From a virus, in IMG/VR virus record IMGVR_UViG_3300009001_000093, positions 1-24,362 of that record: a stretch of DNA of 24,362 nucleotides, one strand, 5' to 3'. The stretch's first letter is position 1. Every line of letters begins with the position of its first letter. Below the pieces are notes generated by a model. That model saw only the letters and a program-made list of their open reading frames with translations, ran no database searches and was not told the DNA's origin. Positions 1-24,362 of the stretch are shown here, in pieces. The position numbers and the translations under genes were made by a program.

Positions 1-338
1 ATACTTGCAGTTGCCGTAGAACAAGATGAACCTGAGCCATCACTGTCACAATTAAAATCAATGTTGTTGCTGTTACCAGTTGTTGAAAATGTGCCTGTAA
101 ATGTTGCACCGTTGACATCAAATGTCAATATGTTTGTATTACCAATCTGGTCAATGTCAATAGTAGATGTTGCACCAACCACCGATGATGATGTGGTACT
201 GTTACCCACCTTGTTGTCTTGACCATCTTGAGTAATATCAAGATCAAGTGTTGCGCCAGATTGTGTTACATAAATATCATTTGCATGAGCAAACGACACC
301 ATCAATAGCATAATTATTCCTAAGAATAACCTTTTCAT
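1..338 (-). CDS. Curlin-like secreted protein (CsgA/CsgB type), 3' end beyond window
   Basis: The 5' part of a gene starts at ATG 338-336 and runs off the left edge after about 112 codons. Residues 1-19 form a clean signal peptide ending in SFAHA, so the product is exported. The mature part is rich in Ser, Thr, Asn, Gln, Asp and Gly. It has curlin-like units such as ITQDGQDNKVGN and IDQIGNTN, matching the Gln-x-Gly-x-x-Asn spacing of CsgA/CsgB strands. The start overlaps the csgG stop (ATGA) and has a strong GGAGGA ribosome binding site, so it is coupled to csgG. By known curli biology it would be the amyloid substrate or nucleator secreted through CsgG. Two cysteines (in FNCDSD and SSCST) are unusual for a curlin. 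The repeats are degenerate and the C-terminus is unseen, so CsgA versus CsgB cannot be decided. Confidence 0.72.
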   Translation of the reverse strand, partial: MKRLFLGIIMLLMVSFAHANDIYVTQSGATLDLDITQDGQDNKVGNSTTSSSVVGATSTIDIDQIGNTNILTFDVNGATFTGTFSTTGNSNNIDFNCDSDGSGSSCSTATAS

Positions 339-1135
339 TCCTCCTCCTTCTTCTTATATTTCCAGAGCCCTTTCGCTTCGCCTTTCTCTACCATTTGTAA
401 AACACTATATTCTATTGCTGTTCTGATAGCGTAGTTAGTGGGTTCGTTTCTAGCCACGCCAAGTTCTACCTCTAACGCCTTTGTTCCTAAGTCTAGAAAC
501 TTAAAGGCATCGCCGCCTATCTTCTGACTGGCGATTGTTTTTGTTGAGGATACTGATAGTAATATCTCTCCTGTCTGAACAGCTACTAAACGCAAAGATA
601 CTGTGACTTGATCCGTTCTGTACTTTCTATAAGCACCTATGCCAAAGTATCTTGCACCTTCTCCACCACTTACCACATTTGAATCATAACTTACGATTCC
701 ACCTTCTACTAGAAGGCCTGCAAAAAGTAATGGTTTTAATGAATTCACCGCATCACCATCGTATGCTTCTCTTGTTGACCTTATCAATTGTCTTTCTTTT
801 ATTAAACTGTCTAAGCCCTGTCTCTCCACTACCGTAAACCAATCACCATTACCGACAGACTTTAGAGCATCTATTAGATATGTTTCTGGTGCCTGTGATA
901 CAGCAGTCGATAACTGTGAAAACCTTGTCGATGGTTTTCTCTGTCCTGATCTGTCTGGAAAACTATACACCGCAATTGTTATCACTGGTTGGTTTAGTTG
1001 TGGTACAGCTCTTAGCAACTCAGTAGTGGGTGTTCCTTCTGCATAGGGCAATGACCCATGTAGAATAAACTTTTTACTGCTTGCACATCCACCCAGCACA
1101 AGTGCAATTCCAAAAACTAATAATATCTTTTTCAA
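335..1135 (-). CDS. csgG: Curli secretion channel lipoprotein CsgG
   Basis: The 266-residue product matches E. coli CsgG along most of its length. It has a lipoprotein signal with lipobox LGGC (Cys17), then family signatures such as WFTVVERQGL, SGGEGARYFGIGA, TGEILLSVSSTKTI and a C-terminal GLWKY. In bacteria CsgG forms a nonameric outer-membrane pore that exports curlin subunits. The start is TTG at 1135-1133, overlapping the csgF stop (TTGA), with AGGAG about 10 bases upstream. No in-frame ATG lies nearby and the signal peptide begins at this codon, so I accept TTG. The pore-constriction segment differs from E. coli: KP-STRFSQL-STAV replaces KP-YPASNF-STAV. This is one of the safest assignments in the window, although its role in a phage is unknown. 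Confidence 0.95.
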   Translation of the reverse strand: MKKILLVFGIALVLGGCASSKKFILHGSLPYAEGTPTTELLRAVPQLNQPVITIAVYSFPDRSGQRKPSTRFSQLSTAVSQAPETYLIDALKSVGNGDWFTVVERQGLDSLIKERQLIRSTREAYDGDAVNSLKPLLFAGLLVEGGIVSYDSNVVSGGEGARYFGIGAYRKYRTDQVTVSLRLVAVQTGEILLSVSSTKTIASQKIGGDAFKFLDLGTKALEVELGVARNEPTNYAIRTAIEYSVLQMVEKGEAKGLWKYKKKEEE

Positions 1136-17570: not shown

Positions 17571-17578
17571 TATTTATT
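17571..17578 (-). promoter_or_regulatory. Candidate late promoter (AATAAATA) giving a leaderless message
   Basis: Minus-strand AATAAATAG lies between the gp41 stop and ATG 17565, leaving only GCCTT between octamer and start codon. The spacing is identical to the perfect octamer before GTG 2851. It marks the switch from replication to virion genes, where a late promoter would be expected. Confidence 0.5.
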
Positions 17579-18959
17579 AAACTTTGAAGTCAGCAAATCG
17601 ATCTATTAGCTCTTCTCCTTGTCCATTATCAACCATATCTTCTTGTGCAGTTTGATTGACATCATAAAGTTTCATCTTTGCCCTATCTACTCCAATAATA
17701 AACTTTTTGTTTGCAGTTGGATCAGCATATCTGTTTTTCAATTGTTTAATCAAAATCTGATTGAGTTCTTCAAGTTCTTCAGTCTGTATCAATGCAAACA
17801 TAAAGTCAGCAGTAGCAGGTAAACCAAAAGATTCCGATGTATCTTCTAGACCAATGTCTGTCGATACAAACCCTGTTCTGGTTGTTTGTGTTGCAGAAAC
17901 AATCGGCAAATCAAACTCTACAGCAAGACCTCTAAGTTCTTCAGCAATACCCTTAATATAAGTATAAGAGTTTACATTAGCACCAGCTTTAAATCTACTC
18001 GAAGCACATATGTTGATATAATCTACAAATACAATATCTGGTTTAAAATCTTTCTTCAACATCAGTTCATTAAGAAGTGATCTAAAATGACCACAATGTG
18101 CTGATGCTGTTGGATATTCTTTAACTATAAGTTTGCCTTGTGTTTTCTTTTGAAGTTTAGCAAACTTACTCTCATACATATGTTTGGGCAAATCGTGTAG
18201 ATCGTCCATTGTCACATTCATCAAGTTTGCATCTACACGTTCAGCAATTCTTTCTTCAGCCATTTCTAATGTGATGTATAATGCGTTTTTACCTTGCATC
18301 ATAACAGATGCGGCCATGTGACACATAAACAACGATTTACCAACACCTGTGCCGGCGATGGCAATATTCAATGTCTTGTTTGGTAAACCACCTTTGGTAA
18401 TTCTATTGAAGAAATCTAGATCAAAGGATATTTTAGATTCGGAACGATTGTAATATTCAAATCGATCTTCGAATTGTTCCATGTAGTCATGGCCAACGTG
18501 TTTATCAAACGATACAGAAAGTGCATCTGACAATAAACTTGGCAGAACATCGGGTGTTTGATCTCTGTCTTTACCTTCAATGATGTGAATGCTGTTGAGT
18601 ACAGCATTGTAGATAGCTTTATCTTTACACCACTGTTCAGTTTCATTAGTTAACCATTCAAAACCAACATCTTCGATTGGTAACCCTTCTAACCACTCTA
18701 ATGAAACACGATATTGTTCATCGTTTAGTGATGTTTTTTTTACTTCTATAGCAAGTGCAGCAGGTGTTACTGTACTCTTGTATTCTTCGGCATAACGCCA
18801 AATAGATTTGAATATTACCTTTTCAATAGCATCCTGAAAATACTCTTCTTTTATAAACGGAATAACTTTTCTTGCAAATTCTTCATTATGAATCAGATTG
18901 CTCAGTATAGTCCTTTCTATCCTCGGTGTCATCGCTTGTGCCAATTTGGATTTGGTCAT
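17577..18959 (-). CDS. 41: Replicative DNA helicase, DnaB family (T4 gp41)
   Basis: A 460-residue helicase that unwinds DNA 5' to 3' at the fork and works with primase. The N-terminal domain aligns with T4 gp41 (TILSNLIHNEEFARKVIPFI, EEYFQD). The RecA-like domain has Walker A GTGVGKS at 203-209, the following strand with LEMAEE at about 231-236, Walker B VFVDYIN near 310-315, and SATQTTR as the H4-type sensor loop. The C-terminus is acidic and may bind partners. ATG 18959 is favoured by AAGGA about 8 bases upstream, although it overlaps the preceding gene by 74 bases. Met10 (18932) would align better with the short start of T4 gp41 but has no visible ribosome binding site. Confidence 0.95.
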   Translation of the reverse strand: MTKSKLAQAMTPRIERTILSNLIHNEEFARKVIPFIKEEYFQDAIEKVIFKSIWRYAEEYKSTVTPAALAIEVKKTSLNDEQYRVSLEWLEGLPIEDVGFEWLTNETEQWCKDKAIYNAVLNSIHIIEGKDRDQTPDVLPSLLSDALSVSFDKHVGHDYMEQFEDRFEYYNRSESKISFDLDFFNRITKGGLPNKTLNIAIAGTGVGKSLFMCHMAASVMMQGKNALYITLEMAEERIAERVDANLMNVTMDDLHDLPKHMYESKFAKLQKKTQGKLIVKEYPTASAHCGHFRSLLNELMLKKDFKPDIVFVDYINICASSRFKAGANVNSYTYIKGIAEELRGLAVEFDLPIVSATQTTRTGFVSTDIGLEDTSESFGLPATADFMFALIQTEELEELNQILIKQLKNRYADPTANKKFIIGVDRAKMKLYDVNQTAQEDMVDNGQGEELIDRFADFKV

Positions 18960-19245
18960 GTTCTAATCCTTCATCTAAAACAGTCATCAAAATATCTCCG
19001 ACTGTCTTATTAAATCTATCTAACGAATCTTCATTCACTAGTCCATTTTTATTATACAATATTTCATACTCAAAAGTCAATGGTATTACCTCAACTTCTT
19101 CTAAGTCTAATCTATTGCCTTCTGGGTCGTGTATTGGCAGTTTTACATTTCTGTAGTTCCAAACAACACCTTCAAACTCGCCTGCTTGTAGACGAAAGGC
19201 TTGTTCGTCTGTTTCTTTATGAAAGACGTAATGATAATCATGCAT
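18886..19245 (-). CDS. Unknown protein between UvsX block and gp41
   Basis: A 119-residue protein, beta-rich at first ([38 protein letters not shown]) and then helical and acidic (DRFNKTVGDILMTVLDEGLE). It is not recognised as a named family. In the T4 map gene 40 lies between uvsX and 41, but no similarity is evident by eye. ATG 19245 overlaps the oxygenase gene's end by 8 bases and the 3' end overlaps gp41 by 74 bases, so it belongs to the same transcript. Its conservation beside the replication genes would need a database search to judge. Confidence 0.7.
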   Translation of the reverse strand: MHDYHYVFHKETDEQAFRLQAGEFEGVVWNYRNVKLPIHDPEGNRLDLEEVEVIPLTFEYEILYNKNGLVNEDSLDRFNKTVGDILMTVLDEGLEHDQIQIGTSDDTEDRKDYTEQSDS

Positions 19246-19813
19246 AGTGACAATACGAATGTATAATGTATTTTCTATTCGATACAGGTTTTACACCTGC
19301 ATGATAGTATTGCCAAGTTGGCGGAAACATTAACAATCGTCCTCTTTTTGGTTTTACTTCGTATGGAATATATGTGCCAGGTGTATTAATATTCATAAAC
19401 TTTGTTTCGCCACCTTCTTCGACATCGTTGAGATAGATAAAGAAAGCAAGAAACCTTCGTGCAGACTCATGGTTCATCACATCAACGTGAGGATCAAATC
19501 TGTCATAGTCGTTTGCAAGATATCGTTTCATTCTCACCGCTTCATAGCCATACTTCTCTGGCCACATCTTGTCATAGATGTTACAGTCTAGTTTGTAATG
19601 AACGATGTAATCTTGAAACAAGTCAAGCAAACCTTTCTGAACATCATTCCAACCTTGTGTAAATAAATTTAGTTGTTCAAATGAAATGGCATTACCACTT
19701 TCTTCTTGGTGTATAGTTTCATACATCTCATGTTCATCTTCAAATCTTTTAATAAGTTCTTTACAAGATGTTTTATCTATTACATCATCATATACTTTGA
19801 TGTAATTATCCAT
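19238..19813 (-). CDS. 2-oxoglutarate/Fe(II)-dependent oxygenase (prolyl-4-hydroxylase-like)
   Basis: A 191-residue protein from ATG 19813; a TTG at 19843 is in frame but less likely. The double-stranded beta-helix motifs are clear: His109-x-Asp111 (FDPHVDVM), the family segment [15 protein letters not shown] at 125-139, distal His171 (YYHAGVKP) and the 2-oxoglutarate-binding Arg180 or Lys181 (SNRKYIIH). Such enzymes hydroxylate proteins or other substrates using O2, Fe(II) and 2-oxoglutarate. Members are common in marine T4-like phages, with unknown targets. It sits between UvsX and gp41, one gene from a DNA-glucosyltransferase-like gene, so a nucleic-acid target is conceivable. The family signature is nearer to protein hydroxylases than to TET/JBP enzymes. 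It overlaps the uvsX end by 8 bases. Confidence 0.9.
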
Positions 19814-20810
19814 ATGTAAACTTCTCTTTGGCAAACGTATCAAGTTTCTCCATTACTTCTGGTGTAAAGTATTTCTCTGGATCGTTGTTGATAGTTTTAC
19901 CAAACGTCTTTGTGCCGTCAGGTAACTCTATTCTTGTTGATACTGCATTGAACACACCGGCTTCTACAGCAAGTTCTAGAAGCCCATAATACCTATCTAA
20001 ACCCTTCGTGTAAGACAGCCTAACGTCTACCATTTGATTTTCTTTTGTAAGTCTAGACTTATACGTCTTACAATGAACTATGTTGCCTACGACTTCTGTG
20101 CCCTCTTTCTCTTTCTTCTTTGAAAGATACACGATGGTTGATGCAGCATACTTGAGGCCTGAACCACCACCCATTTCTTTCTGTGGGAACATACTACCCA
20201 CAACATCATAGGTGTGGTTAGTCATAATCATAGGTACACCCATCTTACCTAGTTTCAAAGTCAACACTCGAAAGGTTGCCTTTACAATCTGGGCACGAGT
20301 CATATCTTTTGTTTCTTTACCTGCCTCGGTATCTTCAATCTCTTTTGTTGTAGATAACATACCAAGACTATCAAGACATAACAGTAAAGGTTTACCTTCG
20401 CCTGTTTGTTCGTATGCCTCTAACACTTGTAGTGCCTGATAACGAAACTCTTGTACCGTTGTGACTGGCAAAATAGCCATTCGTGCGGAGTCAATATCTC
20501 TTGACTCAATCATGTCCTTTGTAATTGCGGACTCTGATTCAAAGTAGACAACATTCGCATCGGGATCATTGTCTAGAAAAGTTTTACATACACCTAATGC
20601 GAAGAAGGTTTTCCCTGTCGCACTCTCTCCGGCAATTGCCGTAATTTTATTATTAGGCAGACCACCGTGTATAGAACCAGATACCAAAGCATTGAAAATG
20701 TGACTACCAGTGTCCACATAACCCCCAACATCAGCAGCATCAACACCATCAGCAACGATTGAACCATACTTATTACCTGTCTCCCTTATTACGTTCTTCA
20801 AAAAACTCAT
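19806..20810 (-). CDS. uvsX: RecA-like recombinase UvsX
   Basis: A 334-residue recombinase of the T4 UvsX type, which coats single-stranded DNA and drives strand exchange for recombination-dependent replication. Walker A GESATGKT is at residues 61-68, an acidic strand motif YFESESAI follows near 89-96, and Walker [10 protein letters not shown] lies at 142-150. The L2-type region is around MTNHTYDV and [10 protein letters not shown]. The start is ATG 20810 with GGAG 7-8 bases upstream; the TTG at 20813 is not needed. The glycosyltransferase gene ends within this start (TGATG). Length and motifs are ordinary for the family. Confidence 0.96.
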
Positions 20811-21802
20811 CAATTTTCTCCAATATATTTATCCATCATACCTTTAAACAAATCATAATACTCATCCTGTGTAGGGAGTATTGATGTGTAATTTTTTCGT
20901 ATGTCGTTTAGTTGTGTGCCGTCTAGTGACAATATTTTTTCTCGCAAATCTTCATAACTAGAAACTCTTTGCCAGTCATCAATATTGTATGTATTGTTTA
21001 AGTCATAGTCACCCCACACAAAAGGAACTAGACCTACAGAAATTGATTCTGGGTATCTTGATGTTGTTGCTGTAGGATCAAGCCAATTGAAACACAAGGT
21101 ACACTTGGCACGTTCTATCATTGGATACAATACTTTCCACTCTTTGATCCATTTAGCATCTCGTTTGACACCAGAAGGAAACCCACCAACCAATACTGTT
21201 GATATATCTGGATCTCTATACAATTGTCTAATAGTTTTTTCTCTTTGATTTCTCTCAGAAGGTTTCATTCTACCCCAATAAGCAAAGTCTCTATCTTTGG
21301 GTGCACCCATCATCTGAGCCAGTGGATTCTTCAATGTCTGTATGAAATGATACTTCATGCCGTGTATGTTGGCAGGAAAATCAATCTCATCTATTGTATG
21401 AAAGTCACCAAGAGTCACATCTTTGAATGTGCCTTCACGATATAGTTGTTCGGTGTCACCACGATCTGATCGCCACATAATAACTTTCTTACCTTCCATA
21501 TGTGGTGTAAATTCTTTTACAAAGTTATTTGATGTTTCTAAATCTCTTGGGTCAATCTGTATCTCACCGTGATATCTAAACTCACTATCAGATGGTATCA
21601 CAACAACATCAGCATCTTTGAATACTTCTGGATTACGTTTAGGTCTTTGTCGTTTATCAAACGATAGATTATAAGAATCATATTCGTGTTGGGGATTCTC
21701 TTTTATCCAACGAACATACAATTCAAAGAAGGAATCCAATACAGTTTCCAACGGGCCCGTATAGGTCACGTTGCTACGAATTCTTGCACAAACTATTTTC
21801 AT
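20810..21802 (-). CDS. GT-B glycosyltransferase, T4 beta-glucosyltransferase-like
   Basis: A 330-residue protein from ATG 21802; a TTG at 21838 would add 12 residues, but MKIVCARI resembles the start of T4 beta-glucosyltransferase. By eye it follows that 351-residue enzyme: [19 protein letters not shown] (173-191) corresponds to the T4 segment with GGSFRSGQRES that binds UDP-glucose, and [15 protein letters not shown] (247-261) corresponds to TLRVWETMASDAVML. The spacing to the C-terminus is similar, with a final [19 protein letters not shown]. Its place next to uvsX matches beta-gt in T4. The T4 enzyme glucosylates hydroxymethylcytosine in phage DNA, but no gene 42 homologue is seen here, so the acceptor is uncertain. 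Other GT-B transferases cannot be excluded. Confidence 0.75.
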
Positions 21803-21821: not shown

Positions 21822-22949
21822 TTATCTAATAATGTCAATACTATCTATGTTATCTTTTCGCCAAACTTCCAATTCGGTTCTGAGTCTACCTTCCGACTTT
21901 ATATTCTCGTAACGTTTACTTGCTTTCTTTTTCCACCAATTCACAATGTTACTCAACTCATACTTATCCCATTGGTCACTCTTTACCAACTTGTCTGTTT
22001 CTCGCAATATGTATTCTCGACTATTGGCATAGCCATAAGTGGACATATAGAATCGTTTTTGTGTTGTAACATTTTCAGTATCTTTTCTGAACTGTACAAA
22101 CTTCTCATGGGCTGCAGCATTATGTTGTTTCAAACTGTTACTGATAATTTGAATCATCTTGGTCTGTGTTTTGAGTTTGCGACTGCTGGCACCTTTATGC
22201 ACCAAAACACCATCATTCTTTTCTTCAAACCATTTTCTCATCTCATGGTACATATTATCAGCAAAGGTTAGAAAGAACTTTGATTCTGTATCGCCTTTGT
22301 AACGTAAGTATGGACGCATACCATCATACATAGACCCACCTTTGATGTTACCATACAGTGAGGTAGTTTCAAACATACAGAAAGGCCCACCATACTTTTG
22401 ATTTAGAAATCTGCGAACATCATGTGAACAACATATTGCTGCCATCAGTTTGCCACCTAGATAGTTAAACCCAAATGGTTGTGCCGGCACAATCACAAAC
22501 CCCATAATGGTGCCTCTGTTGAAGTGTTGCATCTCTTCCTTATTCTCTGTCTGTAGAGGACGACCTAACCATTCGTTTCTAGGTTTGGCGTTGATAAGAG
22601 GTGATGCCAGTTTGATGAACCCAACAATCTTACCTGAGTTCTTTTCCTGCACACATAGTTTACTATTCTTACCTGGCGGATCATCAGGTGAGAAACTAGC
22701 AGTCATCTCTAACAGGTTATCAAATGTCTCACCTGTTCGTTTGACTACCTCAAAGTCCATATCTTGCGGGTGTACATCAAAGTTCTGAAACAAATCATCT
22801 TCTGGGCCCAAACCAAATAGTGGTGTAGGCATCTCTTTGATACGGTCTATCTTACGACTTCGGAAGTAATCATCTATCCGTTTGAAGTCGGAAAAATAGT
22901 TTACAAGTTTCTCTGCTGCCCAATATGTATCTTTTTCATCAAGTATCAT
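21822..22949 (-). CDS. DruA/DUF4338-like protein
   Basis: A 375-residue protein. Its core (about residues 108-220) follows the DUF4338 pattern of the Druantia protein DruA: VGFIKLASP then RNEWLG (RDxWIG in the family), FVIVP (FLILP in the family), a small-residue helix YLGGKLMAA, and CMFETTSLYG (ETFVxxxxxG in the family) followed by YLRYKGDTE. The C-terminal 150 residues are basic and helical, which fits nucleic-acid binding. ATG 22949 overlaps the polymerase stop (ATGA). DruA belongs to an anti-phage defence system of bacteria; its biochemical role is not settled to my knowledge. Why a phage would place a relative between gp43 and a glucosyltransferase is open. The family call is by eye and needs a profile search. 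Confidence 0.62.
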   Translation of the reverse strand: MILDEKDTYWAAEKLVNYFSDFKRIDDYFRSRKIDRIKEMPTPLFGLGPEDDLFQNFDVHPQDMDFEVVKRTGETFDNLLEMTASFSPDDPPGKNSKLCVQEKNSGKIVGFIKLASPLINAKPRNEWLGRPLQTENKEEMQHFNRGTIMGFVIVPAQPFGFNYLGGKLMAAICCSHDVRRFLNQKYGGPFCMFETTSLYGNIKGGSMYDGMRPYLRYKGDTESKFFLTFADNMYHEMRKWFEEKNDGVLVHKGASSRKLKTQTKMIQIISNSLKQHNAAAHEKFVQFRKDTENVTTQKRFYMSTYGYANSREYILRETDKLVKSDQWDKYELSNIVNWWKKKASKRYENIKSEGRLRTELEVWRKDNIDSIDIIR

Positions 22950-24362
22950 CCGAACAAACTCTCTAGTGTTCTTCGTGTGCCATAACTTCTATCGACTTGC
23001 CAATCAATACATTCCATAATCATTTCGATTGGATCAACAAAAGACTTTGAAAATTGTTTGTCTCTGTCAATTTGTTCATGCAAATTAAACTCTTTAGGTA
23101 ACTCTGAGATAAAAGCAATCACATTAGACTGTAAAATGTTAGGTGTTTTAAGCAAAAGATATTTTAACTTCTCACCTTCTTGAATCAGTTGATACTTGTG
23201 AGTTAGTTTATGTTTCTTCAATAGATGATTATATATCAATGCACCTTTGATATGCATCGGTGTACCTTTCTTAAATATGCTCGACTTGTCTCCCCATTTT
23301 CTAAGACCATTTACTGATCTAGGAAATGCAGTTTCTTCTACAGGCAAATTCATAAAGTCTTTTCTGAAATCTTGAATAAATTTATTTACAGAACTTTCAT
23401 CTTCATTCACAATCACCTTCAAAGAATCTTTCATCTTTTGCCGGCAAGCGTATGGTGTTGATGATTTGACAGACTCAATACCCATAACTTTTAAATTAGG
23501 TTCACTATATCGAACACCCTCGTTGTCATGTACATTGAGAATATATCTTTTCTTGGCAGTCCAGATACCTTTATCAGCAATGACTTCTCGGCCCATCTCC
23601 ATCTTCTGGTCATAGGCGTGAACATAGTCAGCAAGTTCCTGATAGCACCCATTGATAAACGGTTGTAATTTTTCTTCGGCAACCTTATTCAGAAACTCAA
23701 TAGGATTCTTTGGGTTGACTTTATCAACCAACTCTTTGAATCTTACATAGATAGAATCTGTATCTGATGCCACAATGTAATCAATATTATCAGTTTTCAA
23801 TATATCATTTAGATATTTGTTTACTCTCGATTCAATCCAACGAATAGATAACTGACCAGATGTTGTAATGGCAGTTGCCATTCGTTCATCATAATAACGA
23901 AAATACTCATTACCCAAAGCACCATAAGCACTGTTTAGAGCAATCTTTCTAGCCATCTGAATGTTGTGATACGTTGATATTTGACTTAGGTACTTTCTAT
24001 CTTTAGTATCTTCATAGTTTTGTTTTGCCTCAAGCAGATAACCTTTAAACTTAGTTCGGTCAGTGTAATACTTCTCCATCAACTCAGGCAAGAAACCACG
24101 AATATCTGTTCTGAAACAAGCGCCGTTAGGCGTCACTGTGAGTTTTTCACCAAGAACATCCGTATTGACTTCTTTGTTTAACAGTCTGTCGATAGAAATA
24201 GAATCTGGAAACTGTTGTTTAATAAGAGTCTCTAGAGATATGTTGTATTGCATAATCAAATGCGGATACAAACTGTTTAAGTCAAACGACATAATCCATT
24301 CGTGTTGGCCGACTTGTGGTTCTTTCACATAGGCACCAACATACTTTGCACCTTTGGTGTGA
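22946..24362 (-). CDS. 43: Family B DNA polymerase gp43, 5' end beyond window
   Basis: The C-terminal 472 residues or so of a T4-type replicative polymerase. The reading frame stays open to the right edge (KYVGAYVKEPQVGQ), so the 3'-5' exonuclease domain and start lie outside. Visible motifs are A (MSFDLNSLYPHLIMQYNIS), B (KIALNSAYGALGN) and C (VASDTDSIYVRF), whose aspartates bind the two metals. The extreme C-terminus RRTLESLFG resembles the sliding-clamp-binding tail of T4/RB69 polymerases. The stop overlaps the DruA-like gene start. A GTG at 24328 is only an internal codon and not the true start. Confidence 0.97.
   Translation of the reverse strand, partial: HTKGAKYVGAYVKEPQVGQHEWIMSFDLNSLYPHLIMQYNISLETLIKQQFPDSISIDRLLNKEVNTDVLGEKLTVTPNGACFRTDIRGFLPELMEKYYTDRTKFKGYLLEAKQNYEDTKDRKYLSQISTYHNIQMARKIALNSAYGALGNEYFRYYDERMATAITTSGQLSIRWIESRVNKYLNDILKTDNIDYIVASDTDSIYVRFKELVDKVNPKNPIEFLNKVAEEKLQPFINGCYQELADYVHAYDQKMEMGREVIADKGIWTAKKRYILNVHDNEGVRYSEPNLKVMGIESVKSSTPYACRQKMKDSLKVIVNEDESSVNKFIQDFRKDFMNLPVEETAFPRSVNGLRKWGDKSSIFKKGTPMHIKGALIYNHLLKKHKLTHKYQLIQEGEKLKYLLLKTPNILQSNVIAFISELPKEFNLHEQIDRDKQFSKSFVDPIEMIMECIDWQVDRSYGTRRTLESLFG

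What the first reader, a model, noticed from the sequence alone, without database searches (positions are those of the whole stretch)
21822..22949. DruA-like protein encoded by a phage, next to its polymerase
DUF4338/DruA is known from the bacterial anti-phage system Druantia. Here a relative sits in the core replication operon of a phage, where T4 has imm and 42. It could be an inhibitor mimic, a nucleic-acid enzyme of phage replication, or the ancestral non-defence role of the fold.
Basis: partly seen in the sequence, partly recalled or inferred. Interest (0 to 1): 0.72.

Follow-up and report, generated by a model that had tools for sequence, protein, structure and literature searches.

The report
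DruA-like acyltransferase in phage DNA-modification locus
A marine T4-like virus carries, beside its DNA-copying enzyme, a relative of the bacterial anti-virus protein DruA that looks like an acyl-transferring enzyme and usually travels with a sugar-transferring enzyme, which suggests it helps the virus disguise its DNA chemically rather than defend a cell.

Summary
Window 21822-22949(-) encodes a 375-aa protein over Pfam's DruA cut-off (E 4.6e-9), starting 4 nt inside gene 43. The resemblance is already published for six Synechococcus phages (Phold, 2026), so DruA likeness is not new. A confident model (pLDDT 89) is a GNAT acyltransferase; the longest solved-structure alignment is phage Mu Mom, a DNA-base-modifying enzyme (Z 9.8, tied with other GNATs). 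Profiles link bacterial DruA to Mom (96%, E 2e-9) and the phage protein to bacterial DruA (94-96%), but not the phage protein directly to Mom. Two Mom active-site positions are changed here.

Gene neighbourhood is the strongest functional clue: a glycosyltransferase-like gene with a weak T4 beta-glucosyltransferase signal lies within 1.5 kb of the DruA-like gene in 62 of 80 loci found from that gene alone, in several genomic positions. Some cassettes add TAGT or Mom, at the slot where T4 keeps 42 and beta-gt. Best reading: an acyltransferase of phage DNA hypermodification. No Druantia partner lies nearby, and the gene is not fixed after the polymerase (15 of 64 informative loci). Chemistry is untested.

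The parts
21822..22949 (-). DruA-like protein (here DruA1), 375 aa
   Evidence: Pfam DruA 4.6e-9; PHROG_19197; dN/dS 0.06-0.08 against close relatives
22260..22769 (-). GNAT-like core, about residues 61-230
   Evidence: model m4f32dc1a1432, pLDDT 89.3, pTM 0.85; solved-structure matches spanning residues 61-329
22446..22487 (-). P155-AQPFGFNYLGGKL-168, candidate acyl-CoA-binding segment
   Evidence: P155, Q157, P158, G160, N162, G165, G166, K167 invariant in 63 sequences; role inferred from its place before the helix after the GNAT strand
22350..22370 (-). E194-TTSLYG-200 segment
   Evidence: invariant in 18 relatives; S197 and L198 invariant in 63; aligns with ETFVD of bacterial DruA
20810..21802 (-). 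glycosyltransferase-like protein; relatives start at the ATG at 21802, not the TTG at 21838
   Evidence: profile match to T4 beta-glucosyltransferase family, prob 76.7%, E 2.1e-5; score 45.5 against 23.5 for the best of 30 shuffles; no Pfam or PHROG family over threshold
22946..24361 (-). gp43-like DNA polymerase, 5' part beyond the window
   Evidence: PF00136 3e-23; PHROG_262
19806..20813 (-). UvsX-like recombinase
   Evidence: PHROG_97 3.5e-88
19238..19843 (-). 2OG-Fe(II) oxygenase; part of the replication block, membership in the modification cassette not shown
   Evidence: PF13640 2.6e-12
17577..18959 (-). gp41-like replicative helicase
   Evidence: PHROG_19 1.2e-123

Best explanation
A GNAT-fold acyltransferase of the DruA branch that takes part in hypermodification of the phage's own DNA. 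Shown here: DruA profile homology, a predicted GNAT fold, profile homology of bacterial DruA to Mom, and repeated gene linkage to a glycosyltransferase-like gene and, in some phages, to TAGT and Mom. Inferred: it moves an acyl or aminoacyl group from a CoA-type donor to a base, or to a sugar already on a base, and the neighbouring glycosyltransferase acts on the same nucleotide, protecting the DNA from host nucleases. The order of steps, the base and the donor are unknown.
For: Fold: model pLDDT 89.3; the leading solved-structure matches listed are overwhelmingly acyltransferases; Mom 8bv8 gives the longest alignment, 180 residues, Z 9.8. Profiles: bacterial DruA-Mom 96%, E 2.2e-9; phage-bacterial DruA 94-96%; unrelated families at most 3%, ordinary GNATs at most 12%; real scores 62-70 against shuffled maxima of 15-22. 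Linkage: of 80 loci found by the glycosyltransferase alone, 66 carry the DruA-like gene, 62 within 1.5 kb and 41 abutting, in several flanking contexts. HTVC008M has a second DruA-family gene in a row glycosyltransferase-cupin-DruA. Cassettes: pol43-DruA1-GT-TAGT-Mom-uvsX in L249-L251 and L258; Mom in 4 of 14 records carrying the gene. T4 keeps 42 and beta-gt between 43 and uvsX, and T6-like phages carry TAGT at the beta-GT position (PMC13390438).
Against: No direct profile match to Mom (0.9%; score 21.5 against a shuffled maximum of 21.3) and no PF25680 match. Mom S124 corresponds to G165/G166 and Mom D149 has no aspartate counterpart. Z differences under 1 are ties, and no Foldseek PDB match reaches 0.001. 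The glycosyltransferase match to T4 beta-GT is moderate. No thymidylate-synthase-type hydroxymethylase was found in 14 records, most of them fragments. Isolate cyanophages carry the gene without this glycosyltransferase. Loci are related, so counts are not independent.
Confidence: 0.5

Rival explanations
1. A GNAT acyltransferase that acylates a protein, such as a host polymerase or replisome subunit, during takeover.
For: Same fold; the gene lies inside the replisome operon, often between clamp-loader genes 44 and 62. The jumbo-phage review cites phage GNAT Rac acetylating host RNA polymerase (PMC7824862).
Against: Profiles put it with DruA, whose relative is Mom, rather than with ordinary GNATs; repeated linkage to a glycosyltransferase-like gene, and in some phages TAGT and Mom.
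Confidence: 0.2
2. A nucleic-acid-binding accessory of the replisome on a GNAT scaffold that has lost catalysis.
For: Mom S124 and D149 positions are changed; operon place; the C-terminal helical part carries net charge +9.
Against: A dense set of invariant residues at the predicted active face; linkage to enzymes of modification.
Confidence: 0.15
3. It modifies a glycan or small molecule together with the glycosyltransferase, not DNA.
For: Glutaredoxin, cytidylyltransferase-like and cupin genes lie between the pair in L053, L062 and L120; further glycosyltransferases and methyltransferases in some cassettes.
Against: TAGT and Mom in the same cassettes are DNA-modification families; T4's DNA-modification slot.
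Confidence: 0.1
4. A counter-defence decoy or inhibitor of Druantia, or a phage-borne defence part.
For: Homology to DruA only.
Against: No Druantia partner among ten window neighbours by PADLOC; broad, strongly conserved family in replication operons.
Confidence: 0.05

Closest known systems
DruA (PF14236, DUF4338) of Druantia type I
   Same: Pfam match over the cut-off; profile match 94-96%; shared R[DN]x[WY][IL]G and ET segments
   Different: No Druantia partners nearby; the serine and acidic positions of bacterial DruA changed; own C-terminal helical part; own PHROG family
DruA-like protein of Synechococcus phage S-PRM1 (Phold paper PMC12774648)
   Same: Same family: S-PRM1 record matches at 45.6% identity; structural likeness to DruA already published
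   Different: The passages read there give the likeness only, not the gene linkage or the Mom relation
Mom of phage Mu (PF25680; structure 8bv8)
   Same: GNAT fold; longest solved-structure alignment; related through bacterial DruA
   Different: No direct sequence signal; S124 and D149 positions not kept; both genes co-occur in some phages, so not simple substitutes
T4 42 and beta-gt locus
   Same: Same slot between gene 43 and uvsX; a glycosyltransferase-like gene in it
   Different: No hydroxymethylase found; an acyltransferase-like gene in its place

Membership tests
DruA family (PF14236) | curated Pfam score | tested here: met
   36.3 bits against 27; 18 of 18 relatives match
Druantia defence system | partner genes beside druA | tested here: not met
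   ten other window proteins scanned with PADLOC, no Druantia partner; the record is a 24-kb fragment
Druantia defence system | protects a host from phage | not testable with these tools
   needs a plating assay
GNAT superfamily | GNAT fold | tested here: met
   model pLDDT 89.3; acyltransferase matches, Z up to 9.8, none under Foldseek E 0.001 in PDB
Mom family (PF25680) | Pfam Mom match | tested here: not met
   not among families matched by the 18 relatives at E<=5; profile score equals shuffles
Mom family (PF25680) | S124 and D149 of Mu Mom | tested here: not met
   G165/G166 and S197/L198 at those positions by alignment through bacterial DruA; 8bv8 is titled inactive mutant S124A, its sequence confirms the site; role of D149 from memory
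T4 beta-glucosyltransferase family (neighbour gene) | profile match and T4 D100, R269, E272 counterparts | tested here: inconclusive
   76.7%, E 2.1e-5 one way, 46.9% the other; D125, R261, E264 kept in 26 of 26 sequences by motif search; residue roles from memory

The most novel reading that the evidence does not exclude
DruA-fold proteins are a branch of DNA-modifying acyltransferases related to Mom. In marine T4-like phages one works with a beta-glucosyltransferase-like enzyme to build an undescribed acylated and glycosylated base, and in Druantia the DruA subunit may mark or read DNA chemically.
Probability: 0.27. Interest if true: 0.85.

Novelty: new variant of a known kind. Interest (0 to 1): 0.55.

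Why it matters
DruA has no assigned activity in the passages read here. If its phage relatives modify DNA, that gives a direct assay for the family and a testable idea for what DruA does in Druantia. It would also point to a hypermodification system in abundant marine phages, at the same genomic slot where T4 modifies its cytosines.

Tried and rejected
Direct phage DruA-like versus Mom profile match: no signal above shuffles. PDB sequence search with the phage profile: no match at E<=10. PDB sequence search with the glycosyltransferase profile: none. First model (13 sequences) was poor, pLDDT 69. Thymidylate synthase family in 14 related records: none. Tet_JBP: none, but the control also failed to ring, so uninformative. 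A dN/dS comparison of the glycosyltransferase failed because the reading frames were offset and was dropped. Paper on Mom mechanism (10.1093/nar/gkaa319) is not held. Inhibitor mimicry was set aside for lack of any support.

Full report
Observation. The ORF at 21822-22949(-) encodes 375 aa and begins within the last four bases of the polymerase gene. Pfam DruA matches at E 4.6e-9, above the curated cut-off, PADLOC DruA1 at 1.4e-5, and PHROG_19197, a family of unknown function, matches over the full length. All 18 relatives first aligned match DruA.

Prior knowledge. The Phold paper (PMC12774648) reports that six Synechococcus phages encode proteins structurally similar to DruA and shows S-PRM1; our protein matches the S-PRM1 record at 45.6% identity over its length. 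Another paper describes DUF4338 as a GNAT domain (PMC10853773). One GenBank record names a relative 'methylcarbamoylase mom'. DruA likeness and the GNAT fold are therefore not new.

Fold. With 63 sequences the model reaches pLDDT 89.3 and pTM 0.85. Foldseek against PDB gives mostly acyltransferases, none under E 0.001. Realigned by VIA-align 2, Mu Mom (8bv8, S124A) leads with Z 9.8 over 180 residues; the other listed chains are acyltransferases with Z up to 9.2 over 136-165 residues, which is a tie in Z. In the viral library the best matches are giant-virus proteins (Faunusvirus, E 1.5e-16) and an uncultured Caudovirales protein; a Mom is seventh.

Profiles. Bacterial DruA against Mom: 96.2%, E 2.2e-9, 171 columns. 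Phage against bacterial DruA: 83.8% with 18 sequences, 94-96% with 79. Unrelated phage families give at most 3% and ordinary GNATs at most 12%. Column-shuffled controls give maxima of 15.0 (bacterial DruA-Mom, real 69.9) and 21.9 (phage-bacterial DruA, real 62.4). The phage family shows no signal to Mom itself. The serine mutated in 8bv8 corresponds to an invariant serine in the bacterial DruA set and to glycine here; the Mom D149 position is an acidic residue (D or E) in bacterial DruA and not acidic here. Chemistry may therefore differ from Mom, or be lost.

Distribution. Positions vary: after gene 43, between 44 and 62, between hsp20 and 43, and elsewhere. Of 78 polymerase-seeded loci, 14 had no room after the polymerase; of the other 64, 15 have the DruA-like gene next, 25 uvsX and 24 something else. 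In the phage collection 31 records match, while 870 records hold a related polymerase, not all of them marine. The gene is widespread but not fixed.

Neighbour linkage. The next ORF, a glycosyltransferase-like protein, was used as an independent seed. Of 80 loci, 66 also carry the DruA-like gene in the fetched stretch, 62 within 1.5 kb and 41 abutting. The adjacent pair has flanks pol43/uvsX, pol43/gp41, hsp20/pol43, gp44/gp62 and others, so it has kept together through relocations. Many loci are near-identical, so the contexts weigh more than the counts. The glycosyltransferase matches the T4 beta-glucosyltransferase profile at 76.7% and 46.9% in the two directions, with score 45.5 against 23.5 for the best of 30 shuffles.

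Cassettes. In L249-L251 and L258 the order is pol43, DruA-like, glycosyltransferase, a TAGT-like ORF, Mom and uvsX, with endonuclease-like ORFs between; the TAGT match was measured on the L237 copy (PF20691, E 1.4e-15), and the others resemble it by eye. L237 shows glycosyltransferase-TAGT-Mom without a DruA-like gene, near a contig end. L213 has a C5 DNA methylase and another methyltransferase between pol43 and the glycosyltransferase. Mom occurs in 4 of 14 records carrying the gene. T4's order is 43-imm.1-imm-42-beta-gt-segA-uvsX, and T6-like phages carry TAGT where T4 carries beta-GT (PMC13390438). The slot is thus a DNA-modification slot in T4 relatives, which is the main ground for the functional reading.

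Two paralogues. HTVC008M has DruA-family genes at 99535-100659 and 86116-87258, the second after a glycosyltransferase and a cupin gene.

Conclusion. A DruA-branch GNAT acyltransferase, probably of phage DNA hypermodification (0.5). Shown: homology, predicted fold, linkage. Inferred: substrate, donor, order of reactions and protective effect. The gene is under strong purifying selection, dN/dS 0.06-0.08.

Noticed in passing
L127:616-2376: In single-cell genome AG-453-E14 a DruA domain is fused behind a ParB N-terminal domain; in Microbacterium phage Appa a Mom gene follows a ParB-like gene.
   Followed up: partly
L142:33-2051 and L143:1513-2532: Bacterial DruA domains appear fused to what read by eye as transposase domains; no profile scan was run.
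   Followed up: no
L171:12549-15259: HTVC008M carries a second DruA-family gene next to a glycosyltransferase homologue and a cupin gene.
   Followed up: partly
L043: A record titled Thermoplasmata chromosome holds a relative flanked by gp62, regA, hsp20 and pol43 homologues; this looks like phage DNA binned into an archaeal MAG.
   Followed up: no
L164:332-1168: In Enterococcus phage vB_EfaS_159 a Mom-family gene lies between DNA polymerase and a glutaredoxin-like gene, resembling DruA-like followed by glutaredoxin in L053.
   Followed up: no
window 3-1135 (-): Two ORFs look by eye like curli subunit and CsgG-type secretion proteins; not scanned.
   Followed up: no
viral library matches: Best fold matches of the model are uncharacterised giant-virus proteins (Faunusvirus, Yasminevirus, Dasosvirus).
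   Followed up: no
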